Assembly (NCBI RefSeq): GCF_000025485.1
Contig: NC_013851.1
Coordinates: 2,461,501-2,525,500 of the forward strand
Reading direction: 5' to 3'
DNA length: 64,000 bases
Origin: Allochromatium vinosum DSM 180
Lineage (GTDB): Bacteria; Pseudomonadota; Gammaproteobacteria; Chromatiales; Chromatiaceae
Made by a program: the position numbers and the translations under genes. Below, one piece after another: positions 1,748 through 64,000 of the stretch. Numbering within the stretch: the stretch's first letter is position 1; every line of letters begins with the position of its first letter. The notes beneath the pieces were generated by a model. The model did no database searches and was not told the origin of the DNA. It saw only the letters and a program-made list of their open reading frames with translations.

Positions 1748-2872
1748 TCAGATCAGAACCAGATTGTCGCGATGGATCAACTCCTCGTCGTCGAGATAGC
1801 CGAGGATGGACTCGAAGCTCGACGACGGACGACCGCGAATCCGCTCAGCCTCATCGGCATCGTAGTTGACTAGACCGCGCGCGATCTCCTGCCCGGCCTC
1901 GTCGAGACAGATGACGACCTCACCGCGATTGAAACGCCCCTGCACCGCCTTCACGCCCACGGCCAGCAGACTGGTGCCCTTCTCGCGCAGCGCGCGCACC
2001 GCCCCTGCATCCAGCACCAGCCGGCCACGCGCCTGGAGATGGCCCGCCAGCCACTGCTTTCGCGCCGCCTGCGGCCCCTGAAAGGGAATCAGCAAGGTAC
2101 CGACCGACTCGCCCGCACCGATGCGGCTCAAGACCTGCTCGCCCCGTCCGGGTGCGATGATGGTCGGCGTCCCCGAGCGCGCCGCCAGACGCGCTGCACG
2201 CACCTTCGTGACCATGCCGCCGGTACCGAGTCCGGTGACGCTGCCACCGGCAACCTGATCGAGCAGCGGATCACTGACCCAGGTCTCGGGGATCAGCTTG
2301 GCGTCCGGATTTTTGCGCGGATCCTGGTCGAAGAGTCCGTCCTGATCGGTGAGCAGGATCAGCAGATCGGCCTCGATCAGATTGGCCACCAGCGCGGCCA
2401 GGGTATCGTTGTCGCCGAAGCGCAGTTCGTCGGTCGCGACCGTGTCGTTCTCGTTGATGACCGGGATCACGCCGAGTTTGAGCAGCGTGCGCAGCGTGCT
2501 GCGCGCATTGAGATAGCGCGAGCGGTTGGATAGATCATCGCGCGTCAGCAGCACCTGGGCCGTATGCAGCCCGCGCGCCTGGAAGCAATCCTCATAGGCA
2601 CGCACCAGCCCCATCTGACCGATGGCCGCCGCTGCTTGCAGCTCGTGCAGCGTCTTGGGCCGCCGCCGCCAGCCCATGCGCGCCATGCCCTCGGCCACGG
2701 CGCCCGAGGAGACCAGCACGATCTCGTGCCCGGCCTGACGGCGCGCGCTCATCTGCTCGACCCAGGGCGCCAGCATAGCGCGCTCCAGGCCCTGGCCGTC
2801 GCGCGTCAGGAGCGCACTACCGATCTTGACCACCCAACGCCGCGTACCTGGAATCCTGTCTCGCGAGATCAT
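1748..2872 (-). CDS. proB: Glutamate 5-kinase (ProB)
   Basis: A 374-residue enzyme that phosphorylates L-glutamate at the gamma carboxyl, the first step of proline synthesis. The amino acid kinase domain starts at once with [10 protein letters not shown] and includes [27 protein letters not shown] and the [12 protein letters not shown] loop. A C-terminal PUA domain (about residues 275-355) follows, as in full-length ProB. The ATG at 2872 puts the kinase strand about ten residues in, as usual; the open frame extends further upstream but without family-like sequence. It lies 41 bp downstream of obgE, an arrangement common in gammaproteobacteria. Proline feedback inhibition is expected from family knowledge only. 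Confidence 0.95.
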
Positions 2873-2913
2873 GCTGCAACCGCGCTCAGAGTGTGAAGTT
2901 ATCGTATCCGGTT

Positions 2914-4420
<1,507 letters not shown>

Positions 4421-4433
4421 GGATGCTGACTCC

Positions 4434-4748
4434 TCAGCCGGCGCTGATGCCGGTGATCTTGACCGCCGTGAACCACTGACGGTGGCCCTGGCGCTTCATG
4501 TGATGCTTGCGACGACGGAACTTGATGATCTTGACTTTTTTGGCGCGACCGTGCGACTCGACCGTCGCGGTCACCTTGCCACCAGCCAGATAAGGCTTGC
4601 CGACCTTGACATCATCGCCATCGGCCACCATCAAGACCTGCTCGAAATCGACACTGTCGCCGGCCTCGGCGGTCAGCTTCTCGATCTTGACCGTGTCACC
4701 TTCGGAAACCCGGTATTGCTTGCCACCGGTTTGAATGACCGCGTACAT
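4434..4748 (-). CDS. rplU: 50S ribosomal protein L21
   Basis: A 104-residue ribosomal protein L21 of standard length, starting [18 protein letters not shown] and containing the [13 protein letters not shown] basic segment that contacts 23S rRNA. It is the first gene of the minus-strand run rplU-rpmA-obgE-proB. A good sigma-70-like promoter lies about 65-90 bp upstream. Confidence 0.98.
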
Positions 4749-4812
4749 GTTCTGAAGATCCCCAGGAGTGTTCGGATAGGGCCGACGCTCCGCGCCGGAA
4801 CAAAGAAGCGGA

Positions 4813-4841
4813 ATTCAATCAGAAAATCCTTGTTGGGTCAA
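4813..4841 (-). promoter_or_regulatory. Candidate sigma-70 promoter for rplU-rpmA
   Basis: On the minus strand, a TTGACC -35 box (complement of 4836-4841) and a TTGAAT -10 box (complement of 4813-4818) are separated by exactly 17 bases. The -10 box lies about 65 bases upstream of the rplU ATG at 4748, leaving a short leader. The boxes were read by eye; there is no transcription evidence. Confidence 0.55.
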
Positions 4842-4947
4842 CGCCCGAAACCGGATTCAGGTGCGAAGGTGGCCAAACGTCAGCAAGCTGTCGACCGGAA
4901 GCGCCAAATTGCGTACCCTTGTCGAATCGACAGCCGGGGCGCTCGGC

Positions 4948-4977
4948 TTGACAGCCTTTCGTCCCCGCCCCTAGCAT
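4948..4977 (+). promoter_or_regulatory. Candidate sigma-70 promoter for ispB
   Basis: A perfect TTGACA (4948-4953) is followed after 18 bases by TAGCAT (4972-4977, four of six to the -10 consensus), about 33 bases before the ispB ATG at 5011. Together with the rplU promoter on the other strand it makes the 262-bp gap 4749-5010 a divergent promoter region. Confidence 0.5.
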
Positions 4978-5010
4978 CCGCCGCCATTCTACGGTAGACA
5001 CCAGACACGC

Positions 5011-5979
5011 ATGGACCTTTCCAGGATTCGACAACCCGTCGCCGAGGACACCAAGGCCGTCGACGCCTTGATCCTGCGCCGACTCCAATCCGACGTGGTG
5101 CTGATCAACCAGATCGGGCACTACATCGTCAACAGCGGCGGCAAGCGGTTGCGTCCGCTCTCGGTATTGCTGGCCGCGCGCGCCTGCGGCTATACCGGCG
5201 AGCGCCACATCGATCTCGCCGCCATCGTGGAGTTCATCCACACCTCGACCCTGCTGCACGATGACGTGGTCGACGGCTCGGAACTGCGGCGCAATCGCGA
5301 GACCGCCAACGTGGTCTGGGGCAATGACGCCAGCGTGCTGGTCGGCGACTTCCTCTACTCGCGCTCGTTCGAGATGATGGTCGATGTCGGCAACATGCGG
5401 GTGATGGAAGTGCTGGCGCACGCCACCAACCGCATCGCCGAGGGCGAGGTGCTGCAGTTGCTCAACGAGCGCGATCCCGACACGGACGAGGCGCGCTATA
5501 TGGAAGTCATCAGCCGCAAGACCGCGACCCTGTTCGAGGCCGGCACCCGACTCGGCGCCGTGATCGCCGAGTCGCCGCCCGAGATCGAGGAAGCCATCCG
5601 CGAATACGGCCTCCGTCTCGGCATTGCCTTCCAGCTCGTCGACGATGCGCTCGACTACAGCGTCGACAATGCCGAGCTGGGCAAGAACGTCGGCGACGAC
5701 CTCGACGAGGGCAAGCCGACCCTGCCGATCATCCGCGCCATGCAGGTCGGTACGCCTGAGCAACGCGCCCTGCTGCGCGATGCCATCGAGCATGGCGGAC
5801 GCGATCGCATCGAATCCGTCACAGCGGCTATTGCGTCCACCGACGCGATCGACTACACTACGCAGCTCGCACAGTCCTACGCGGCACAGGCCAAAAAAGC
5901 GCTAGAACGCCTACCCGCCTCGCCCGCGAACGACGCACTCGCCCTGCTGGCGGATTTCGCGGTCGCTCGCACGTATTGA
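5011..5979 (+). CDS. ispB: Octaprenyl (long-chain all-trans polyprenyl) diphosphate synthase
   Basis: A 322-residue E-type prenyltransferase that builds the long side chain of ubiquinone and menaquinone by adding isopentenyl diphosphate to an allylic primer. The first aspartate-rich motif is LLHDDVVDGS (Asp84, Asp85, Asp88) and the second is QLVDDALDYS (about 207-216); GGKRLRP near residue 45 binds the diphosphate. Divergence from rplU-rpmA is the usual gammaproteobacterial arrangement of ispB. Chain length cannot be read with certainty from sequence. Confidence 0.95.
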   Translation: MDLSRIRQPVAEDTKAVDALILRRLQSDVVLINQIGHYIVNSGGKRLRPLSVLLAARACGYTGERHIDLAAIVEFIHTSTLLHDDVVDGSELRRNRETANVVWGNDASVLVGDFLYSRSFEMMVDVGNMRVMEVLAHATNRIAEGEVLQLLNERDPDTDEARYMEVISRKTATLFEAGTRLGAVIAESPPEIEEAIREYGLRLGIAFQLVDDALDYSVDNAELGKNVGDDLDEGKPTLPIIRAMQVGTPEQRALLRDAIEHGGRDRIESVTAAIASTDAIDYTTQLAQSYAAQAKKALERLPASPANDALALLADFAVARTY

Positions 5980-5994
5980 CGGTGTATCGATTTA

Positions 5995-6071
5995 CGGGGT
6001 GTAGCTCAGCTTGGTAGAGCGCTGTCTTCGGGAGGCAGAAGTCGCAGGTTCGAATCCTGTCACCCCGACCA
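5995..6071 (+). tRNA. tRNA-Pro (anticodon CGG)
   Basis: A complete 77-base cloverleaf: acceptor CGGGGTG pairing with CACCCCG, D-arm with AGCTCAGCTTGGTAGAGC, anticodon stem CTGTC/GGCAG around loop TTCGGGA giving anticodon CGG, a T-arm with GTTCGAATC, and an encoded CCA at the end. It lies 15 bases after ispB. Confidence 0.96.
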
Positions 6072-6085
6072 AATTCCCGAAATAG

Positions 6086-6112
6086 AAAAAACCGGCTCAG
6101 GCCGGTTTTTTC
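6086..6112. terminator. Bidirectional intrinsic terminator
   Basis: An A-run, then ACCGGC-TCAG-GCCGGT, then TTTTTTC. The stem with A-tract on the left and T-tract on the right should stop transcription from tRNA-Pro/ispB on the plus strand and from the sensor gene ending at 6159 on the minus strand. Confidence 0.85.
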
Positions 6113-6158
6113 TTGTGCGCGATAACGGCACGCGTCGTCCATGACGCCTGCACGAGCC

Positions 6159-8210
6159 TCAACTCCGCCGGTTCATGTCCGCCCATTCCTCGCGCCCGCC
6201 CCAGTTGTCGAGATGATTGAGCAGGCTCAGCACGAAGCGCTTGTCGAAACGACGGCCGATCTCGCGCATCAGAATCGCCTCGGCCTCATCGAAACTCCGG
6301 GCGTCGCGGAAGGACCGCGGGCTGATCAGGGCCACGAAGGCATTGGCGAGCGCGACCACCTGGGCGGCGGGCAGGATCTCGTCACCCTTCAGACCGCGCG
6401 GCCGACCGCTGCCGTCGACCCATTCGTTGATCTGCGCCAGGGTTTCGAGCACAGGTCCATCGAACTCGATGTCGCGCAGCAGCTCCGGCCCGGCATCGAG
6501 CGCCTCACGCACCCGCTTTAGCTCCTGATCGGTCAGGCTGCCGCCCTTGACCAGCAGTGAACGCGGGATGCGGATCTTGCCGATGTTGACCAAACGCGCG
6601 GCCTGTTCGGTCGTCTCGACCTGCGGCGGGTCGAACCCGAGATCCTCGGCCATGGCGCGCGCGACCTGGACGACGTATCTGGACTGATGCGCCGAATCGG
6701 GATCGCGCTCGTCGACCAGGCCGACGAGGGTGTCGATCAGTTGCTGGGTGTTGCGTTCGCGCCGGGCGCGCTCACGCATCAGATCGGTCAGATCCTCGAT
6801 GGTGACGAGCACGGCCGGTTCCTGGGCATCGGTCGCGGCCGTAAAGGGGCAGTGATGCGAGCGCCACACCCGCTCCCCGCCCGGCTCGTCGCTCAGGTGC
6901 CTGATCTCGACCTGCGGCGCTCCATTCTCCAGAACGCGCTGATTGATCGCGCCATAGAACCCGCCTGCGTCCTGCCCGAGCACGCCGGTCAGCGAGCGTC
7001 CGATCAGTTCGTCGCGCGCGATGCCGCTGAGTTCGGCCAGACGCCGGTTGGCATAGGTGATGTGGTTGCTTGCATCGACGACCAGGATGGGATTGGGCTG
7101 GCTGTCGGTCAGGATGTCGAGGAAACCCGACAGACGCTCGAAGCGCTCCGAGGACAGCCGATAACACTCCGCGACCTCCTCGACCCGACGCGAGGTGGCA
7201 TAGAACCACACCAGCACCAGGGCCGCGCCGATCAGCACCACCAGCAGAGCCAGACCGCTGATGAGCGTCATGCGCCGCGCATCGCTTGCCGCCAGGGCTT
7301 CAGCGGCACCGATCCGATGCACCAGCACCCAGTCGGTTCCGGGGATGCGCCGACTGACGGCAAAGGATTCGGTGAAGGCGTAATGACGGCCCTGATGGAA
7401 CAGCCCCGGCTGCTCCAGCGCCTCGACGTCGATGAGATCCCTGGTGTTGATCGCGAGTCGCTTCGTCAGCGGTTCACTGCCGTCGAGCAGCGGCGAGAGA
7501 TATTCGATCAGATTGCCGGATCGACGGATCACATAGGTCTCGGACGTGCGCGCGGCGAGTCCCGGCTGCTTGAGTATCGCAAAGACTCCGGCATCGATCG
7601 GACGCAGCGCCAGCAGACGCGCAATCACGCCCCCCGACCCTTCCTGCCCGGACGTGTCCGCCACCACCGGCACCAGAAAACCGAGTGTCAGCCGCTCATG
7701 CGCGCCGCGATGCAGATCGAGCAGCCCGCGCTCGGTCAGCGGCGTTCGTTGCAGAAAATCGGCCAGCGCACCCTCGATCGGCGGCATGCCGCTCGTTGCG
7801 GCCAAGAGGCGGCCTTGCGGATCGAGCGCCGCCAGACTGCCTTCGAGTCCCACTTCAAAGCGGCTGGGCTGATAGCCGGTACTCTGGCGCGACAGAAACC
7901 CCATGCGTTCGGCCGTCACGGCCAGCAGGTCGCGCAGCGTCTCGCGGGCCGTCTCGTCCGGCGACTCACTCGTCTGCGCCAGCGCTCGGTGCAAGGGAGG
8001 ATACTGCGCCGACCGCTCCAGCACGGCATACTGACCCTGCAACCAATGCTCGATCGCCTCGGCACGACTGTCGGCCACGAGGCTCATCTGGGTCTGCAAG
8101 GACTGGAGATCGCGCCCCTTCTCCGCGTTGGCGAAGACGATGATGCCGTAGATCGCCAACCCCAGACTGAGCACGAGCGCGGCGATGGCGAACTGGATCT
8201 GTTTGTTCAA
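6159..8210 (-). CDS. Membrane sensor: periplasmic cache-like domain, PAS, degenerate HD-GYP domain
   Basis: A 683-residue inner-membrane protein. TM1 is at about 7-27, followed by a periplasmic ligand-binding region of about 290 residues (cache-like), TM2 at about 317-338 and a PAS domain at about 365-475 (DSQPNPILVVDASNHITYANRR). The last 190 residues align with HD-GYP phosphodiesterases by framework, including NIGKIRIPRSLLVKGGSLT, GSGRPRGLKGDEI and an A-x-A-F-x-A-L-x-S-x-R-x-x-R segment. The metal ligands are largely gone: the HD pair is VN, the HHE triplet is INE and GYP is GRP. It is therefore probably a non-catalytic c-di-GMP binder or protein-interaction module. It is monocistronic, with a shared terminator past its 3' end. 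Confidence 0.8.
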   Translation of the reverse strand: MNKQIQFAIAALVLSLGLAIYGIIVFANAEKGRDLQSLQTQMSLVADSRAEAIEHWLQGQYAVLERSAQYPPLHRALAQTSESPDETARETLRDLLAVTAERMGFLSRQSTGYQPSRFEVGLEGSLAALDPQGRLLAATSGMPPIEGALADFLQRTPLTERGLLDLHRGAHERLTLGFLVPVVADTSGQEGSGGVIARLLALRPIDAGVFAILKQPGLAARTSETYVIRRSGNLIEYLSPLLDGSEPLTKRLAINTRDLIDVEALEQPGLFHQGRHYAFTESFAVSRRIPGTDWVLVHRIGAAEALAASDARRMTLISGLALLVVLIGAALVLVWFYATSRRVEEVAECYRLSSERFERLSGFLDILTDSQPNPILVVDASNHITYANRRLAELSGIARDELIGRSLTGVLGQDAGGFYGAINQRVLENGAPQVEIRHLSDEPGGERVWRSHHCPFTAATDAQEPAVLVTIEDLTDLMRERARRERNTQQLIDTLVGLVDERDPDSAHQSRYVVQVARAMAEDLGFDPPQVETTEQAARLVNIGKIRIPRSLLVKGGSLTDQELKRVREALDAGPELLRDIEFDGPVLETLAQINEWVDGSGRPRGLKGDEILPAAQVVALANAFVALISPRSFRDARSFDEAEAILMREIGRRFDKRFVLSLLNHLDNWGGREEWADMNRRS

Positions 8211-55387: not shown

Positions 55388-56885
55388 TCAAACCTCGCCG
55401 ATGAGTTCGACCCGCCCCCGGTCGTCGACCGTCTCCAGGCGCACGGTGAAGCCCCACAGACGGCGGATGTGGCGCAGCATCTCCGGCACCGAGTCACCCA
55501 GCGGGCGGCGCTGGTGCGCGAAGTGACGCAGGGTCAGCGAGCGGTCGCCGCGCCGGTCGACATTGTAGACCTGAATGTTGGGCTCGCGCGTGCCCAGATT
55601 GTACTGTTCCGCGAGCGCCTGACGCAGGGCGCGATAGCCGCTCTCCTCGTGGATCGCCTTGACTTCGAGATGTTCCTCCAGATCGTCGTCGGTGATGGCG
55701 AACAGACGGAACTCGCGCATCAGGTTGGGCGAGAGGAACTGGGCGATGAAGCTCTCGTCCTTGAAGTTGCGCATGGCGAAGTCGAGCACCTTGATCCAGT
55801 CGCCGCCGGCGATGTCGGGGAACCAGTAGCGGTCCTCGTCGGTGGGTGATTCGCAGATGCGGCGGATGTCGCGCATCATGGCGAAGCCGAGCGCATAGGG
55901 ATTGATGCCATTGTAGTAAGGCGCATCGAACGGCGGCTGGAATACCACGCTGGTGTGCGATTGCAGGAACTCGATCATGAAGCCGTCGCTGACGAGTCCG
56001 TCGTCATACAGATGGTTCATGAGCGTGTAATGCCAGAACGTAGCCCAGCCTTCATTAGCCACCTGCGTCTGGCGCTGCGGATAGAAATACTGCCCGATCC
56101 GCCGCACGATGCGCAGGATCTCGCGCTGCCAGGGTTCGAGCAGGGGCGCATTCTTCTCGATGAAATAGAGGATGTTCTCCTGCGGCTCCTCCGGCCAGCG
56201 CTCCTCAAGCCGCGACGCGTCGTGCTCGGCGGTCGGCGGTCGGCGGCAAGGTGCGCCAGAGATCGTTGATCTGCGATTGCCGATAGTCCTCGCGCTCGCG
56301 CTGGCGGCGCTGCTCCTCGGCCATCGACAGCGGCGACGGGCGCTTGTAGCGGTCGACGCCGTGGTTCATCAGGGCATGACAGGAATCGAGCAGCAGCTCG
56401 ACCTCATCATGGCCGTAACGCTCCTCGCACTGGGCGATGTACTTCCGGGCGAAGACCAGATAGTCGATGATGGCGTCGGCGCTGGTCCAGGTGCGGAACA
56501 GATAGTTGCCCTTGAAGAAGCTGTTGTGCCCGTAGCAGGCATGCGCGATCACCAGCGCCTGCATCGGCAGGCTGTTCTCCTCCATCAGATAGGCGATGCA
56601 GGGATCGGAGTTGATGACGATCTCATAGGCCAGACCCATCTGACCGCGCCGATAGGTCTGCTCGGTGGCGACGAACTGCTTGCCGAACGACCAGTGCTGG
56701 TAGTAGATCGGTAGGCCTACGGAGGAATAGGCGTCGATCATCTGCTCGGAGCTGATGACCTCGATCTGGTTGGCGTAGGTGTCGAGTCCGTAGACCTCGT
56801 GGGCCAGGCGGCCGAGTTCCCGGTCGAACCGCTCCAGGAGCGGAAAGGACCACTCGGATGAATCCGTGATGAGTCGTGTGCTCAT
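55388..56885 (-). pseudogene. spoVR: SpoVR/YcgB family gene with frameshift
   Basis: Two adjacent minus-strand frames (56885-56205 and 56107-55388, with coding sense continuing up to about 56230) together make one SpoVR protein. The first begins [20 protein letters not shown] and breaks after LWRTLPPTAD; the second resumes with EHDASRLEERWPEEPQENIL and continues through the conserved VANEGWATFWHYTLMNHLYD. The break sits in a tandem 7-bp repeat; removing one copy restores a single 496-residue frame reading PPTAEHDAS. Full SpoVR proteins are about 500 residues. The rest is free of other defects, so the lesion is recent, phase-variable, or a sequencing error. It overlaps yeaH by four bases. Confidence 0.88.
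56227..56246. repeat. 7-bp tandem repeat at the spoVR frameshift
   Basis: CGGCGGT CGGCGGT CGGCGG: two full copies plus six bases of a third. The array length decides the spoVR reading frame: with one copy fewer the gene is open. This is a classical slipped-strand site. Confidence 0.85.
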
Positions 56886-58153
56886 GCCGTCTGCCTCTTG
56901 AACAACTCGCGAAACACCGGATAGATGTCCTCGGCACCGTCGATCTCCTGCATCGCGAAGTGCGGATGCGCCGCCATCACTTCCTCATAGGCATACCAGA
57001 GGCTCTGATGCTGACGCGGCGTGATCTCGACATAGGCGTAATAGCGCATCAGCGGCATCAGCTTCTCGATCAGCAGATCGCGGCAGAGGCTGGAGTCCGA
57101 ATCCCAGTTGTCGCCGTCCGAGGCCTGGGCGGTATAGATGTTCCAGACGCTCGGGTCATAGCGCTCCTTGACCACGTCATAGGCCAGATTGAGCGCGCTC
57201 GACACCACGGTGCCGCCGGTCTCGCGCGAGTAGAAGAAGTCCTCTTCGTCGACTTCCTGAGCGATGGTGTGATGGCGGATGAAGACGACCTCGATCCGGT
57301 CGTAATTGCGCTTCAGAAACAGATACAGCAGGATGAAGAAGCGCTTGGCGAGACTCTTGCGCTCCTGATCCATGGAGCCTGAGACGTCCATGATGCAGAG
57401 CATGACGGCCTTGCTCGTCGGCTCGGGCAGCTTGACGAAGCTCTGATAGCGCAGATCGAAGGTGTCGATGAAGGGCAGCGCGGCGATCCGGGTCTTGAGC
57501 CGGTCGATCTCGGCGCGCCGTTCGCCGATGTGCGGGTCGGTCTCCGGAACCCCGTCGGCAAGCAGACGCGCGACCTCTTCCTCCAGCTCGCGGATCCGGG
57601 CGCGTGAGGGCGCACCGAGCGCGGTCCGCCGGGCGACCGCGCCCTTGAGCGAGCGCACCACATCGATATTGGTCGGCGCGCCCTGGGTCGAATAGCCGGC
57701 GCGCACCGTCTTGAACTCGGTGGTGCCGATGAGCTGGTTGCGCACCAGATTGGGCAGTTCCAGATCCTCGAACAGCAGATCCATGAACTCCTCGCGCGAG
57801 AGTTCGAAGACGAATTCATCCTCGCCCTGCCCGTCCTTGCTCGCGCGCCCCTGACCCGAGCCGCCGCCCTGCCCGCCCTCGGGCCGACGGATGCGGTCGC
57901 CCGACTCGAACTGCTTGTTGCCGGGGTGCACCATGTCGCGCACCCCGCCCTTGCCGTGATGGAACACCGGCTCGGATATGTCGCGCGACGGGATGCCGAC
58001 CGTCTCGCCGGAATCCATGTCGGTGATGCTGCGCTTGTCGACCGCGTCGGCCACGGCCCGCTTGAGCTGGGTCTTGTAACGCTTCAGGAAGCGCTGGCGG
58101 TTGACCGCGCTCTTGTTCTTGCCGTTCAGACGCCGGTCGATGAAGTGTGACAT
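56882..58153 (-). CDS. yeaH: YeaH/YhbH family protein (DUF444)
   Basis: A 423-residue protein of the DUF444 family. The N-terminus [26 protein letters not shown] is conserved; the middle is charged and Gly-rich, and the C-terminal half has a von Willebrand A-like fold with [21 protein letters not shown] (metal-site DxSxS). It works with PrkA and SpoVR in general stress and nitrogen starvation responses in enterobacteria; the mechanism is unresolved. Starts 30 bases after prkA. Confidence 0.93.
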
Positions 58154-58183
58154 AGGAACTCGCTGTGACGCTGGCGGTTCGAG

Positions 58184-60106
58184 TTACTGCGACTTGCGCA
58201 CCCGCAGATACCACTCCGAGAGCAGCCGCACCTGCTTGGGCGTGTAGCCCTTGTCGGTCATGCGGTCGACGAACTGGTCGTGCTTCTTCTTCTCGTCGAC
58301 CGACGCCTTGGCGTTGAAGGAGATGACCGGCAGCAGATCCTCGGTGTTGGAGAACATCTTCTTCTCGATGACCACGCGCAGCTTCTCGTAGCTGGTCCAT
58401 TTCGGATTGGACCCGGCGTTGTTGGCGCGCGCGCGCAGCACGAAGTTGACGATCTCGTTGCGGAAGTCCTTGGGATTGGAGATCCCGGCCGGCTTCTCGA
58501 TCTTCTCCAGCTCCTCGTTGAGCATGGCGCGGTTCATCATCTCGCCGGTGTCCGGGTCGCGATATTCCTGATCCTGGATCCAGTAGTCGGCATAGGTGAC
58601 ATAGCGGTCGAAGATGTTCTGACCGTACTCGGCATAGGACTCCAGATAGGCCGTCTGCAACTCCTTGCCGATGAACTCGGCATAGCGCGGGGCCAGATAC
58701 TGCTTGAGGAAGCCGAGATAGCGTTCCTGGGTCTCGGGCGGCAGTTGCTCGCGCGCGATCTGGCGCTCCAGCACATAGAGCAGATGCACCGGATTGGCCG
58801 CGACCTCGCTGTGATCGAAGTTGAACACCTGCGACAGGATCTTGAACGCAAAGCGCGTCGAGATCCCGCTCATGCCCTCGTCGACGCCGGCATAGTCGCG
58901 ATATTCCTGCACCGACTTGGCCTTGGGGTCGGTATCCTTCAGGTTCTCGCCGTTATAGACGCGCATCTTGGAAAAGAGGCTCGAATTCTCCGGCTCCTTC
59001 AGGCGCGTCAGGACCGAGAACCTGGCCATCATCTCCAGGGTGCCGGGCGCGCAGGGCGAGGCGGCGAGCGAGCTGTTACGCAACAGCTTCTCGTAGATCC
59101 GCACCTCTTCGTCGACGCGCAGGCAATAGGGCACCTTGACGATGAAGACGCGGTCGAGGAAGGCCTCATTGTTCTTGTTGTTGCGGAAGCTCTGCCATTC
59201 CGATTCGTTCGAGTGCGCCAGGATGATGCCCTGGAACGGCAGGGCCGAGAGACCCTCGGTGCCGTTGTAGTTGCCCTCCTGAGTCGCCGTGAGCAGCGGA
59301 TGCAGCACCTTGATCGGCGCCTTGAACATCTCGACGAACTCCATCAACCCCTGGTTGGCCCGACACAGCGCACCCGAATAGCTGTAGGCGTCCGCGTCGT
59401 TCTGGGCGAAGCGTTCGAGCTGACGGATGTCGACCTTGCCGACCAGCGCCGAGATGTCCTGGTTGTTCTCGTCGCCCGGCTCGGTCTTGGCCACCGCGAC
59501 CTGTTCCAGGATCGAGGGATAGAGCTTGACCACCTTGAACTTGGTGATGTCGCCGTTGTACTCCTGCAAGCGTTTCACCGCCCAGGGCGACATGATGGTG
59601 CGCAGGGCGCGGCGCGGGATGCCGTAGTCCTCTTCCAGGATGGCGCCGTCCTCTTCGGGTGAGAACAGGCCCAGCGGCGACTCGAACACCGGCGAACCCT
59701 GGATGGCGTAGAAAGGCCGCTCCTCCATCAGTTCCTTGAGCTTCTCGGCCAGCGACGACTTGCCGCCGCCGACCGGCCCCAGCAGATAGAGGATCTGTTT
59801 CTTCTCCTCCAGCCCCTGCGCGGCATGCTTGAGATAGGAGACCAGATGCTCGATCGACTCCTCCATGCCGTAGAACTCGGCGAAGGCCGGATAGCGCCGG
59901 ATCATCTTGTTCTGGAAGATACGGCTCAGACGCGGATCGTCGCGGGTGTCGATCAGCTCGGGCTCGCCGATCGCCGCCAGCAGCCGCTCGGCCGGCCCGG
60001 CGTAGGCCGAGCGGTCGGTCTTGCACAGCTCCAGGTACTCGTTCAGGCTCAGCACCTCCTCGCGGGAGGCTTCGTAGCGGGCCTGATAGCGTTCGAAGAT
60101 CGACAT
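58184..60106 (-). CDS. prkA: PrkA family serine protein kinase / AAA+ ATPase (YeaG)
   Basis: A 640-residue protein of the PrkA/YeaG family, normal length. The N-terminal AAA+ domain has the P-loop LLGPVGGGKSS (about 110-118); a C-terminal kinase-like domain with KKMFSNTEDLLPVISF and later segments follows. Members phosphorylate themselves or, in Bacillus, act as an ATP-dependent protease; in E. coli YeaG supports survival in long starvation. I place the start at ATG 60106, preceding MSIFERYQARYEASREEVLS, the conserved N-terminus. First gene of prkA-yeaH-spoVR-ldt. Confidence 0.94.
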   Translation of the reverse strand: MSIFERYQARYEASREEVLSLNEYLELCKTDRSAYAGPAERLLAAIGEPELIDTRDDPRLSRIFQNKMIRRYPAFAEFYGMEESIEHLVSYLKHAAQGLEEKKQILYLLGPVGGGKSSLAEKLKELMEERPFYAIQGSPVFESPLGLFSPEEDGAILEEDYGIPRRALRTIMSPWAVKRLQEYNGDITKFKVVKLYPSILEQVAVAKTEPGDENNQDISALVGKVDIRQLERFAQNDADAYSYSGALCRANQGLMEFVEMFKAPIKVLHPLLTATQEGNYNGTEGLSALPFQGIILAHSNESEWQSFRNNKNNEAFLDRVFIVKVPYCLRVDEEVRIYEKLLRNSSLAASPCAPGTLEMMARFSVLTRLKEPENSSLFSKMRVYNGENLKDTDPKAKSVQEYRDYAGVDEGMSGISTRFAFKILSQVFNFDHSEVAANPVHLLYVLERQIAREQLPPETQERYLGFLKQYLAPRYAEFIGKELQTAYLESYAEYGQNIFDRYVTYADYWIQDQEYRDPDTGEMMNRAMLNEELEKIEKPAGISNPKDFRNEIVNFVLRARANNAGSNPKWTSYEKLRVVIEKKMFSNTEDLLPVISFNAKASVDEKKKHDQFVDRMTDKGYTPKQVRLLSEWYLRVRKSQ

Positions 60107-60562
60107 GGACTCATACCTCACTCGGAAGGGGTGGTGACCTTCGACCGCGTCGGTCACAACAGGTGCGATCGCGCCTGTATCAGAGAGCGTATCGCCCCAT
60201 CGGGCGTCGGATCAGCGAGGCGGTCGGGGTGATATTCAATGAAGCAATGATCGGGCCATTGACAGGACAGACGTCATCGCCGTCTCGCACGCTCCGAGTC
60301 TGTCGTTGAGAAACCCGATTTGCACCGAATCAGTGCATCAAGCGCGGCGTCCAACACCCGCTTGGACGATCCGCGCCCCAAACAACCAGCGTGGTCCGAT
60401 GCATGGATGTGAGACGAACGCACCTGCGTAGTGCATTGAATCGACCAAGCCGCAGAGATCTCGGTTCCGCGTTTCATTAGATGGAGTTCCCAAAGTGGGA
60501 CTCCAAGCCTGTGCAACCGAAGACAGCGCGTCGATACTGACACGACTCGCCGACACTATCCG
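60107..60562. other. Non-coding or decayed region upstream of prkA
   Basis: This 456-bp stretch has several overlapping short open frames on both strands but none with a recognisable product or ribosome binding site. Part must carry the prkA promoter. Its composition is lower in GC than the flanks, consistent with decayed or acquired DNA next to the mobile element. Confidence 0.5.
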
Positions 60563-60650
60563 GCGTTTATAAAACTTCATTTGGATTTCGGCGCCGATGA
60601 CTATACTCCTGAAGCTGACCCTCAGGCGCGGGTGCACGCCATTCAACGGC

Positions 60651-60698
60651 GCCGCAGATCCTGGATGCCGCAGATCCTGGATGCCGCAGGTCATGCAT
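60651..60698. repeat. Three 16-bp tandem repeats
   Basis: GCCGCAGATCCTGGAT at 60651-60666 and 60667-60682 (identical), then GCCGCAGGTCATGCAT at 60683-60698 (three differences). A local duplication within the response-regulator remnant, about 170 bp left of the IscB element. Confidence 0.85.
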
Positions 60699-60865
60699 GC
60701 GCCGGTTATGTGACCCCGCACCTGGACCCGGAGCGTTCGGTCGATATGCACGTCGGGCGCATTCGTCGTCAGTTACGTGAGGCTGGCATCCAGAACGTGA
60801 AGCATCCTGGCGATTCGCAGGCATGGCTAGCGGCTGAACGTCGGAAACCAAAAGGAATTCTCGTC

Positions 60866-61139
60866 AACTACCCCGGCCTGAAGGCCGGAGCTTGAAAGAG
60901 CTGGGTTGACCAGGGACAGCGGTGAACATCCGCTGCGTTTGCAACAGGTCGTTGAGACCCACTCCGGAATGCTTCCTCAGTCCCGGACCCTGGAAGGTCG
61001 GAATCATGCAGGCGAAAGGCAAAGCGCCGAAGGTTCCGATCGCCGCCGCGCGGCGGGAGCCGGTTGCAGACATTCCCGAGGGGAGCGAGCCGCGAGGCTC
61101 CGTCACCAGGCCCGTAAGGGCGCGTTTTGGAACAGAGCG
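60866..61139 (+). ncRNA. Predicted omega RNA (HEARO RNA) of IscB
   Basis: About 270 bases directly upstream of iscB on the same strand with dense self-complementarity and no coding sense. Stems I can pair: 60873-60878/60883-60888; 60902-60906/60957-60961; 60917-60922/60930-60935; 60986-60989/60996-60999; 60998-61003/61034-61039 (the last two partly exclusive); GAGCC-GCGA-GGCTC at 61087-61100 with a GNRA loop; GCCC-GTAA-GGGC at 61110-61121, also GNRA. Position, length and structure fit the HEARO/omega RNA that guides IscB. The guide is expected at its 5' end, just left of the first hairpin. Ends and fold are approximate. Confidence 0.75.
60873..60888 (+). repeat. Left-end hairpin of the IscB element
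   Basis: CCGGCC-TGAA-GGCCGG, a perfect six-base stem with a four-base loop, preceded by CTACC and followed by AGCTTGAAAG. It has the form of the subterminal palindrome of IS200/IS605-type left ends and probably also forms the first stem of the omega RNA scaffold. Confidence 0.7.
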
Positions 61140-62489
61140 ATGGCGGTATTCGTACTCGACAAACAGAAACATCCGCTGATGCCGTGCACGGAGAAACGCG
61201 CGCGGCTGTTGCTGGAGCGCGGACGCGCGGTGGTGGTGCGTCTGGCCCCCTTCACCCTTCGGCTGAAGGATCGAATCGGCGGGGCGGTTCAACCGCTGCG
61301 CCTGAAGCTCGATCCGGGCAGTCGCGTCACGGGGCTGGCGCTGGTGCGCGAATCCGAAACCGGTGATGCGGACACGGGCGCGGTCGAGCGCCTGGAGCAT
61401 GGGCTGTGGTTTGGGGAACTCGTGCATCGCGGCCAGGCGATCCGGGAGGCGCTGACGCTGCGGCGTCACTATCGCCGAGCACGCCGGTCTCGGAAGACGC
61501 ACTACCGGGCGCCGCGCGTCCTGAATCGCCCCCGCCGTGAGGGCTGGTTGCCGCCGTCGTTACAGCATCGGCTCGACACGACGCTCAATTGGGTCGAGCG
61601 CCTGCGCCGGCTCGCCCCGATCACCGCCCTCAGTCAAGAACTGGTGCGTTTCGATACCCAGGCGCTCCAGAACCCGGAGATCTCCGGTGTGGAGTACCAA
61701 CAGGGCGAACTGGCCGGTTATGAGGTGCGTGAATACCTGCTGGAGATGTGGCACCGGAGCTGCGCCTATTGTGGCGCGACGAACGTGCCGCTGGAGATCG
61801 AGCACATCGTGCCGCGCGCCAAAGGCGGCTCGGATCGGGCCTCGAACCTGACGCTGGCTTGCCGCCCCTGCAATCAGCGCAAGGGGAGTCGATCCATTGA
61901 GGATTTTTTGCAACGCCAACCGGTGCGCCTGCACCAGATCCAGGCCCAGGCCAGAGCGCCGCTCCAGGACGCCGCCGCCGTCAATGCCACGCGCTGGGCG
62001 CTGTTGAACGCGCTCCAGACCACGGGCCTAGCGGTCGAGACCGGCTCGGGCGGACGCACCAAGTTCAATCGCACGCGCCTGGACATCCCCAAAACCCATG
62101 CCCTCGATGCCGCCTGTGTCGGCGCCGTCGATCAGGTGCGCGACTGGAACCGCCCGGTCCTGGCTATCCGTGCCACCGGGCGCGGCGCTTACCGCCGCAC
62201 GCGCACGTTCAACAACGGCTTCCCGCGCGGCTATCTGATGCGCCACAAGCGCGTCCACGGCTTCCAGACCGGCGATTGGGTCAGCGCCGTGGTGCCTACG
62301 GGAAAGAAAGCGGGCGTGCATATCGGGCGCGTCGCGGTGCGCCAAACGGGATCGTTCAATATCCAGGCCCCGGCCGGAACCGTCCAGGGGATTGCCTACC
62401 GCCATTGCTGCCTCATTCAACGCGCTGACGGCTATGGCTACGCCTTCCAACCTAAACCAGATACGGAGGAGGCGAGACGGGCGGCCTGA
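61140..62489 (+). CDS. iscB: IscB RNA-guided endonuclease
   Basis: A 449-residue protein with the complete IscB plan. Residues 1-50 form the PLMP domain (PLMP at 12-15). RuvC-I carries Asp58 in LKLDPGSRVTGLAL. An arginine-rich bridge helix covers about 107-134. RuvC-II carries a glutamate in GELAGYEVREYLL (190-201; Glu195 most likely). A zinc-finger HNH (206-255) has Cys208/211/241/244 and catalytic His222 in IEHIVPRAKGGSD. RuvC-III carries His320 and Asp323 in PKTHALDAACVG. The last ~100 residues would be the target-motif-interacting region. All catalytic residues are present, so it should be active. IscB is the ancestor of Cas9. Start: ATG 61140, though the frame is open upstream through the RNA region. 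Confidence 0.95.
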   Translation: MAVFVLDKQKHPLMPCTEKRARLLLERGRAVVVRLAPFTLRLKDRIGGAVQPLRLKLDPGSRVTGLALVRESETGDADTGAVERLEHGLWFGELVHRGQAIREALTLRRHYRRARRSRKTHYRAPRVLNRPRREGWLPPSLQHRLDTTLNWVERLRRLAPITALSQELVRFDTQALQNPEISGVEYQQGELAGYEVREYLLEMWHRSCAYCGATNVPLEIEHIVPRAKGGSDRASNLTLACRPCNQRKGSRSIEDFLQRQPVRLHQIQAQARAPLQDAAAVNATRWALLNALQTTGLAVETGSGGRTKFNRTRLDIPKTHALDAACVGAVDQVRDWNRPVLAIRATGRGAYRRTRTFNNGFPRGYLMRHKRVHGFQTGDWVSAVVPTGKKAGVHIGRVAVRQTGSFNIQAPAGTVQGIAYRHCCLIQRADGYGYAFQPKPDTEEARRAA

Positions 62490-62537
62490 CCGCGCTACGC
62501 GCGGTGCGCTGTCCCTCCCCGTCATGAAGGACGGGGT
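62489..62537 (+). terminator. Two hairpins at the right end of the IscB element
   Basis: The first, ACCGCG/CGCGGT (62489-62494 with 62500-62505), starts at the last base of the stop codon. The second, CCCCGTC-ATGAAG-GACGGGG (62517-62536), is followed by TTTC and matches the right-end hairpin style of IS200/IS605-type elements. Together they may also stop iscB transcription before the chemoreceptor gene, though the T-tract is short. Confidence 0.65.
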
Positions 62538-62553
62538 TTCTCGCGCAAGACTG

Positions 62554-64000
62554 ATGAAAAACTTGACCATTGGTTTGCGGGTGCTCATTGGTTCTGGAAT
62601 CGTGCTGGTGTTGAGCGTTGGTTTGATTCTGCCGCTAGCCATGGCCAAGTTGAGCGAGCTGTCGAATCAGGCCGAACAGCGCGAGCTGGAAAATCTCTTC
62701 GTCAACCTCACCGAGGCGATCGCCGCCCAAGGCGCCCAGGCCCGCGCATTGAGCGCCGCCATTGCGCGCAATCCGGACATCCAGCGCGCCTTTGCCGAGG
62801 GCAATCGTGATCGGCTGATCGAACTGACCCGACCGATCTTCGACTATATGCACGAACATCAGGGCGTGCAGCAGTTCCAGTTCCACCAACCGCCCGCGAC
62901 CTCGTTCCTGCGGGTGCATATGCTCGAAAAATACGGCGACGATCTCTCGGCGATCCGCAAGACCATCGTGGAAGCCAACCGCACCCAGTCCCCGATCAGC
63001 GGACTGGAAAAAGGCGTGGCGGGGCTGGGTGTGCGTGGAGTCGAGCCTGTGCCCTATGAAGGGCGACACATCGGCGTCGTCGAGTTCGGTCTCTCATTCG
63101 GTCAAGCCTTCTTCGAGCATTTCAAACGACGCACCGGCGTCGATGCCGCCTTGCAGATTACGGAGGATGGCGGTGGCTTCAGAACCTTCGCCGGCACCAT
63201 CCAGGGCAGTACGCTGTTTTCCGCCGAACAGCTCGCACGCATTCTGGCCGGTGAGATCCTGATCCAGCATCGGGACTACCAGGGCATCCCGGTGGCGGTG
63301 TATGGGCGTGTGGTAAACGATTTTTCGGGGCAGCCGGTCGGAGTGCTAGAGCTGATCGGCGATCGGAGCGCCACGGTCGCCACCTATCACCGCGCGCTCG
63401 CCTCGATCCTGGGCACGGGCGTGGCCCTGCTGATCGTCGGACTCGTGATCGCCTGGTTCATCGCTCAGGGGATCGCCAGATCCATTCGCCGTACCGTCGA
63501 GAGTCTCGACGCCATCGCCCAGGGCGACGGCGACCTGACACGCCGCCTCGACGACCAGGGGCGCAACGAACTGGGCGACCTGGCGCGCGCCTTCAATGCG
63601 TTCGCCGACAAGATCCATGCGCTCGTTTCCCAGATCTCCAGGGCCACTTTCGAGCTCCAGGGGGCGTCCGAGCAGCTCTCCACCACGAGTGGCGAGACCT
63701 ACCGTCAGGTCAAGGTAGAGCAGAGCGAGACCGATCAGGTCGCGACCGCGATCAACCAGATGACGGCCACCGTCGAAGAGGTTGCACGTCACGCCGCCGA
63801 GGCGTCGCGTGTGGTCCAGGAGACGAGCCGTGCGGCCACACACGGCGATCGGCTCGCTCAACAGACAGTCGAAGCGATCGAGGCCGTGGCCCATGAGATC
63901 GAGCAGGCCGGCCAGGTCGTCGCGCGGCTGGCCGCCGACAGTCGCGAGATCGGAGCCGTGCTCGATGTCATTCGCGGGGTCGCCGAACAGACCAACCTGC
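62554..64000 (+). CDS. Methyl-accepting chemotaxis protein (3' end cut by window)
   Basis: 482 residues are visible and the frame is open at the window end. TM1 is at about 9-30. A periplasmic sensor of about 250 residues (double-cache type: IFDYMHEHQGVQQFQFHQPPATSFLR, and VAVYGRVVNDFSGQPVGVLELIGDR) follows, then TM2 at about 284-306, HAMP (about 307-360) and the start of the signalling helices with AINQMTATVEEVARHAAEAS. Such sensors often detect small organic acids. The conserved tip of the receptor lies beyond the window. The ATG at 62554 is 17 bases from the IscB right-end hairpin and lacks a good ribosome binding site. Confidence 0.92.
   Translation, partial: MKNLTIGLRVLIGSGIVLVLSVGLILPLAMAKLSELSNQAEQRELENLFVNLTEAIAAQGAQARALSAAIARNPDIQRAFAEGNRDRLIELTRPIFDYMHEHQGVQQFQFHQPPATSFLRVHMLEKYGDDLSAIRKTIVEANRTQSPISGLEKGVAGLGVRGVEPVPYEGRHIGVVEFGLSFGQAFFEHFKRRTGVDAALQITEDGGGFRTFAGTIQGSTLFSAEQLARILAGEILIQHRDYQGIPVAVYGRVVNDFSGQPVGVLELIGDRSATVATYHRALASILGTGVALLIVGLVIAWFIAQGIARSIRRTVESLDAIAQGDGDLTRRLDDQGRNELGDLARAFNAFADKIHALVSQISRATFELQGASEQLSTTSGETYRQVKVEQSETDQVATAINQMTATVEEVARHAAEASRVVQETSRAATHGDRLAQQTVEAIEAVAHEIEQAGQVVARLAADSREIGAVLDVIRGVAEQTNL

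What the first reader, a model, noticed from the sequence alone, without database searches (positions are those of the whole stretch)
60866..62537. Complete IscB system: nuclease plus omega RNA region
The window contains an IscB with every catalytic residue present (Asp58, the RuvC-II glutamate, His222 of HNH, His320/Asp323), a PLMP domain and a bridge helix, preceded by about 270 bases of structured non-coding DNA with two GNRA-capped stems. IscB proteins are RNA-guided DNA nucleases and the ancestors of Cas9 (established). An intact copy in a purple sulfur bacterium, small at 449 residues, is a natural example worth characterising.
Basis: partly seen in the sequence, partly recalled or inferred. 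Interest (0 to 1): 0.85.

Follow-up and report, generated by a model that had tools for sequence, protein, structure and literature searches.

The report
IscB mobile element at start codon
This is an intact mobile element carrying IscB, an ancestor of Cas9, with its guide RNA; it is an ordinary member of a known family, but this copy and many relatives sit exactly on the start codons of genes.

Summary
Window 60863-61091 matches Rfam HEARO (103.2 bits, cut-off 83). The 449-residue ORF 61140-62489 matches NCBIfam guided_IscB (455.3 bits, cut-off 175); its five catalytic residues are invariant in 24 of 24 aligned sequences. It is a known kind of system: an IscB/omega-RNA element without its own transposase, one of nine HEARO copies in this genome, five with IscB.

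The element runs 60863-62553 and stops right before the ATG (62554) of a chemotaxis-receptor gene. In 53 of 54 genus copies with a right end found, ATGA follows. A classifier of the 54 sites gene starts, against 85 of 1174 background ATGA sites. Empty acpP sites in relatives show base-precise insertion between ribosome-binding site and ATG. IscB-less copies end in a strong replacement ribosome-binding site (30 of 30); IscB copies do not (0 of 22).

Most likely mechanism (inferred): the left flank is the guide, ATGA the target-adjacent motif, and IscB cuts element-free alleles so that repair keeps the element. Transcription and cleavage were not testable here.

The parts
60847..60862 (+). Inferred 16-nt guide: the left flank, which is the displaced native leader (AAGGAATTCTC, a ribosome-binding-like stretch) of the downstream gene
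   Evidence: Position left of the HEARO start; about 16-17 nt guide length taken from passages of PMC9640706; not measured here
60863..62553 (+). Whole element, 1691 bp, from GTCAACTACCCC to ...GCAAGACTG
   Evidence: Both ends shared with other copies; exact matches of both end patterns in the window; precise junctions seen at acpP empty sites of a sister copy
60863..61091 (+). Omega RNA (HEARO) scaffold
   Evidence: Rfam RF02033, 103.2 bits; covariation over 41 sequences
61140..62489 (+). iscB, 449 aa plus stop
   Evidence: NF040563 455.3 bits, PF14239 and HNH, PDB IscB relatives
62517..62536 (+). Right-end hairpin CCCCGTC-ATGAAG-GACGGGG
   Evidence: Read from the sequence; similar hairpin in the other copies
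62537..62553 (+). Right tail TTTCTCGCGCAAGACTG, without a strong ribosome-binding site
   Evidence: Anti-SD pairing energy -2.7 against -5.6 for the displaced left flank (16S tail from recall)
62554..62557 (+). ATGA at the right flank: start codon of the next gene and inferred target / target-adjacent motif
   Evidence: ATGA in 53 of 54 genus copies with a right end found
62554..64000 (+). Methyl-accepting chemotaxis protein gene (runs beyond the window; 636 aa in L024) whose leader is replaced by the element
   Evidence: dCache_3, HAMP, MCPsignal; MCP families for the full protein; site called a start

Best explanation
A mobile element of the IscB/omega-RNA (OMEGA) kind, without a transposase of its own, that inserted between the ribosome-binding site and the start codon of a chemotaxis-receptor gene. 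Shown here: protein family, RNA family and fold, catalytic residues, both ends, the ATGA right flank, and for sister copies precise insertion without target duplication and an excess at gene starts. Inferred: an RNA with about 16 nt of left flank as guide loads into IscB; the complex cuts element-free copies of the site where the guide sequence is followed by ATGA; repair from the occupied copy restores or spreads the element. The occupied site is spared because the element's own GTCA follows the guide there. Movement would need a Y1-type transposase in trans.
For: guided_IscB 455.3 bits; HEARO 103.2 bits; invariant catalytic residues in 24 of 24; 30 of 51 RNA pairs with compensatory change; shared ends and ATGA in 53 of 54; acpP empty sites in 7 of 7 other genus genomes, with left-16 identity of 15-16 in G000, G001, G003 and G007; guide plus ATGA found in the own genome only at this locus, where GTCA stands in place of ATGA; two Y1 transposases elsewhere in the genome. 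The retention and gene-drive model is described for TnpB in passages of PMC11870625.
Against: No expression, cleavage or transposition data. No transposase in the element, and no shared ends were shown with either Y1 gene (one search found one similar hairpin only). No empty site of this very copy was found: the 72%-identical gene in G007 begins ATGCTGAAAAAC and the upstream sequence showed no alignable left flank. The HEARO score is the lowest of the five IscB copies here (103.2 against 106.5-110.7).
Confidence: 0.75

Rival explanations
1. The start-codon excess needs no RNA-guided homing. A transposase that joins at ATGA, plus loss of insertions inside genes, leaves mostly start codons and intergenic sites; IscB adds nothing to where copies persist.
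For: ATGA alone brings in many starts: 85 of 313 non-interior background sites. Start share does not differ clearly between IscB-bearing and IscB-less forms (11 of 22 and 18 of 30).
Against: Starts remain in excess against intergenic sites alone: 31 to 15 in the copies, 85 to 228 in the background, odds ratio 5.5, p 1.7e-7; copies are related, so the p-value is too small.
Confidence: 0.5
2. A decaying copy: the protein reads through but the RNA or protein no longer works, and only other copies are active.
For: Lowest HEARO score among the five IscB copies of the genome.
Against: No stop inside the ORF, invariant catalytic residues, both ends intact.
Confidence: 0.15
3. A domesticated regulator: the element now controls translation or transcription of the chemotaxis gene, either through the new leader or by guided binding at start regions.
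For: It replaces the leader of that gene and swaps a ribosome-binding site of -5.6 for -2.7.
Against: Catalytic residues are kept, unlike what a nuclease-dead regulator would need; multi-copy and scattered sites look like a mobile element; the guide finds no other target in the own genome.
Confidence: 0.1

Closest known systems
IscB/omega-RNA (OMEGA) systems with solved structures: OgeuIscB (7xht, 8csz), TbaIscB (9k30), HfmIscB (9k2z)
   Same: PLMP, split RuvC with HNH, upstream HEARO-type RNA, same catalytic residues
   Different: Low sequence identity. Motifs given for OgeuIscB and OrufIscB in passages of PMC13180657 are NWRGNA and NTAAA; here ATGA is inferred from insertion sites
HEARO RNA motif (RF02033)
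   Same: Full-length match over the cut-off
   Different: Nothing notable in this copy; ATGA/GTGA insertion of HEARO elements is something I recall from its first description, which is not held
IS200/IS605 family elements with TnpB
   Same: Hairpin ends, insertion without duplication at the acpP sister site, flank-derived guide (recalled; described for TnpB in PMC11870625)
   Different: No transposase inside; guide at the left and motif at the right; nuclease is IscB, not TnpB
Standalone omega-RNA elements (recalled from Altae-Tran 2021, not held)
   Same: IscB-less copies in this genome, 4 of 9
   Different: In this genus they carry a GGAGG-type ribosome site at the right end (30 of 30); I do not know whether that was described

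Membership tests
IscB | Match to the IscB profile over its curated cut-off | tested here: met
   NF040563 455.3 bits, cut-off 175
IscB | PLMP motif, RuvC and HNH catalytic residues | tested here: met
   P12-P15, D58, E167, H222, H320, D323 invariant in 24 of 24
IscB | Omega RNA directly upstream | tested here: met
   HEARO 60863-61091, 103.2 bits; covariation
IscB | RNA-guided DNA cleavage next to a motif | not testable with these tools
   Only the insertion motif ATGA was seen
Cas9 | Match to Cas9 models over cut-off | tested here: not met
   Cas9d 41.2 bits against 375; Csn1 21.7 against 100
Cas9 | CRISPR array and cas genes nearby | not tested
   No array search was made
IS200/IS605 element | Y1 transposase in the element | tested here: not met
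   Element 60863-62553 holds only iscB as a long ORF family match; Y1 genes lie at C1:2927420 and C1:2313915
IS200/IS605 element | Insertion without target duplication at a fixed short motif | tested here: met
   Tested on a sister copy at acpP; ATGA in 53 of 54. Not shown for this copy, whose empty site was not found

The most novel reading that the evidence does not exclude
This IscB family uses the start codon itself (ATGA) as its target-adjacent motif and the ribosome-binding region as much of its guide. Hosts cannot easily escape by mutating such a target, so RNA-guided homing concentrates the elements on start codons of conserved genes; the IscB-less form evolved a replacement ribosome-binding site that makes such insertions tolerable.
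Probability: 0.3. Interest if true: 0.72.

Novelty: new member of a known kind. Interest (0 to 1): 0.45.

Why it matters
As a locus it adds one more IscB to a well-studied family. The start-codon pattern matters more: it offers a natural test of whether RNA-guided nucleases shape where mobile elements persist, as homing endonucleases do with conserved sites, and it shows omega-RNA elements standing as the 5' leaders of genes such as acpP, rph, ubiA and surE in relatives. It also suggests ATGA as the first motif to try with this small nuclease.

Tried and rejected
Rejected: a Cas9 or a defence HNH protein. PADLOC gives only weak PtuB-type matches over the HNH part (best 38.2 bits) and Cas9 models are far below cut-off. 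The mir-330 match inside iscB (22.7 bits, cut-off 60) is taken as chance.

Led nowhere: an empty site of this very copy (the translations printed were in the wrong frame or strand and were not used); an autonomous element with the same ends beside the two Y1 genes (an IS605-like copy at C1:2927420 has a similar right hairpin, no more).

Limits. The site classifier uses codon usage from 34 window ORFs (number printed). It misses true starts (surE was called interior, yet the SurE profile begins at residue 1) and may over-call background starts. The background is the window plus ten stretches of the same genome, not the whole genome. The 31 starts include the one site that is ATTGAG, not ATGA. 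Copies are related; one pair (G000 C1:1736964, G006 C1:1815935) shares its site. The left-flank ribosome-site comparison was thought of after seeing the data; it is p 0.009 at start sites, 0.013 without the shared pair, 0.31 at other sites.

Dropped before counts: 16 of 75 genus matches below the HEARO cut-off, then 5 of 59 with no right end found. Outside the genus, 40 of the 64 matches listed were fetched; 23 of the 40 gave a right end with RTGA and enough sequence, 15 gave no right end, 2 no RTGA. The RTGA was part of that search, so the 23 do not test the motif; in three of them (L202, L216, L217) the HEARO match does not begin at GTCAAC, so the left flank is uncertain, and the right end of L202 is doubtful.

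Full report
What is there. Rfam HEARO matches window 60863-61091 at 103.2 bits over the full model. The ORF at 61140-62489 encodes 449 residues and matches the NCBIfam model for IscB at 455.3 bits, PF14239 at 236.8 bits and three HNH families. Its best PDB sequence relatives are TbaIscB, OgeuIscB and other IscB chains. In an alignment of 24 sequences D58, E167, H222, H320, D323 and the PLMP motif are invariant. OgeuIscB has D61, E193, H247, H340 and D343 according to passages of PMC9640706. An AlphaFold model of moderate confidence (pLDDT 70.1) finds IscB and IsrB chains first.

The RNA. An alignment of 41 HEARO sequences that I chose (29 from the genus, 12 from other genera) folds into 51 consensus pairs, 30 of which show at least one compensatory change. 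So the RNA structure is kept by selection in this group.

The genome. The main contig has 3,526,903 bases and the assembly 3,669,074. By recall these sizes fit Allochromatium vinosum DSM 180; the nearest named protein relatives are A. humboldtianum and A. palmeri. It holds nine HEARO copies. Five are followed by an IscB over the cut-off; four are IscB-less elements of about 0.4 kb. The window copy is 84-93% identical in protein to the other four. In the genus 6 of 8 genomes have HEARO matches, 5 of 8 over the cut-off; in the family sample 26 of 194 have matches, 21 over the cut-off.

The ends. The copies share a left end, mostly GTCAACTACCCC, and a right end with a hairpin followed by TTTCTCGCG and then CAAGACTG (most IscB-bearing copies) or GAGGAACTG (most IscB-less copies). 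Of 59 genus copies over the cut-off 54 had a right end; 53 of these are followed by ATGA and one by ATTGAG. For the window copy the element is 60863-62553, and ATGA at 62554-62557 begins a chemotaxis-receptor gene.

Empty sites. Four occupied sites were compared with the other genus genomes. The clearest is acpP in G006. The other seven genomes lack the element there; in G000, G001, G003 and G007 the left 16 bases agree at 16, 16, 15 and 16 of 16 and run straight into ATGAGCAGC (without gaps, the other three agree at 13, 13 and 2). So the element lies exactly between the acpP ribosome-binding site and its start codon, with no duplication. At rph and ubiA the seven other genomes are empty and have ATG, not always ATGA, at the junction, but their left flanks are poorly conserved. 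At the AmmeMemoRadiSam gene two genomes (G000, G006) are occupied, five are empty and one gave no match.

Start codons. A codon-usage classifier of 54 genus sites gene starts, 8 interior and 15 intergenic; of 1174 background ATGA sites, 85 are starts, 861 interior and 228 intergenic. The excess is strong against all sites (odds ratio 17, p 6e-20) and remains against intergenic sites alone (odds ratio 5.5, p 1.7e-7); since copies are related the p-values are too small. Outside the genus 13 of 23 scored sites are starts, 9 intergenic and 1 interior. Family profiles bear out several starts: SurE, acyl carrier protein and TusD match from residue 1, RNase PH from 2, hydroxylamine reductase from 3, HisC from 5, PurE from 9, UbiG from 12, UbiA from 22; a LysR-type protein matches OxyR from residue 1 but below that model's cut-off. 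One of the ten proteins (L103) had no match at the threshold used.

Ribosome sites. A GGA-rich stretch lies before the ATG in 30 of 30 IscB-less copies, 0 of 22 IscB-bearing and 0 of 2 partial copies of the genus. Mean pairing energy with a recalled 16S tail is -8.5 for IscB-less ends, -2.7 for IscB-bearing ends and -2.9 for 270 random genomic stretches. At start sites the displaced left flanks are stronger where the IscB-less form landed (-6.1, n=18) than where the IscB type landed (-3.1, n=13; p 0.009). This after-the-fact test fits the idea that the IscB-less form is tolerated at genes needing a strong site because it brings one. Against it: the share of starts does not differ clearly between the forms (18 of 30 and 11 of 22), the predicted openness of the site is no higher in the IscB-less form (0.34 against 0.43), and IscB-less copies of genome G063 sit at starts with the weak CAAGACTG end. 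For the window copy -5.6 is replaced by -2.7, so the chemotaxis gene may be translated less well; this was not measured.

Mechanism. Inferred: the RNA carries the left flank as guide, IscB cuts that sequence where ATGA follows, and repair from the occupied copy restores the element. In the own genome a 21-base guide-plus-ATGA pattern, with up to three mismatches, finds only this locus, at two mismatches, because GTCA stands where ATGA would be. The retention and gene-drive model is described for TnpB in passages of PMC11870625. No transposase lies in the element; two Y1 genes lie elsewhere. [quoted passage not shown]

Literature. The papers that would settle what was already said about HEARO insertion (Weinberg 2009, Altae-Tran 2021, Kapitonov 2016, and the 2023 Nature paper on transposon-encoded nucleases) are not held. 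From memory, insertion at ATGA or GTGA was noted when HEARO was first described, and standalone omega RNAs are known; I claim neither as new. My searches for IscB, HEARO or IS605 with start codon, ATGA or ribosome-site terms listed nothing that I recognised as describing start-codon insertion; only listings were seen, and passages of PMC9755519, PMC13180657, PMC9640706 and PMC11870625. That is no proof that it is unpublished.

Verdict. The unusual part is the family's concentration on start codons, which deserves a genome-wide test.

Noticed in passing
window 55388-56885 (-): A SpoVR gene appears split into two ORFs in different frames (profile parts 1-207 and 247-405), beside DUF444 and PrkA genes at 56882-60157.
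   Followed up: partly
window 60581-60862 (+): Left of the element a short ORF has a weak, below cut-off match to a response-regulator output domain (Trans_reg_C 15.7 bits, cut-off 26.2), possibly a gene remnant.
   Followed up: no
L071 (G001:C10) 2286-7402: Three HEARO copies with IscB-length spacing lie within about 7 kb, one after another on the same strand.
   Followed up: no
L025 and L099: IscB-less copies sit at the same start codon of an AmmeMemoRadiSam gene in two genomes, G000 and G006: inherited or repeated insertion.
   Followed up: partly
L027 (G000:C1 about 2927420): A Y1 transposase gene (149.7 bits) is followed by a hairpin much like the right end of the IscB elements; it may be the helper.
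   Followed up: partly
L023 (G000:C1:1295776): The one genus copy not followed by ATGA has ATTGAG and lies seven bases before the ATG of a 273-aa ORF; the next gene reads by eye like AprB of sulfur oxidation.
   Followed up: no
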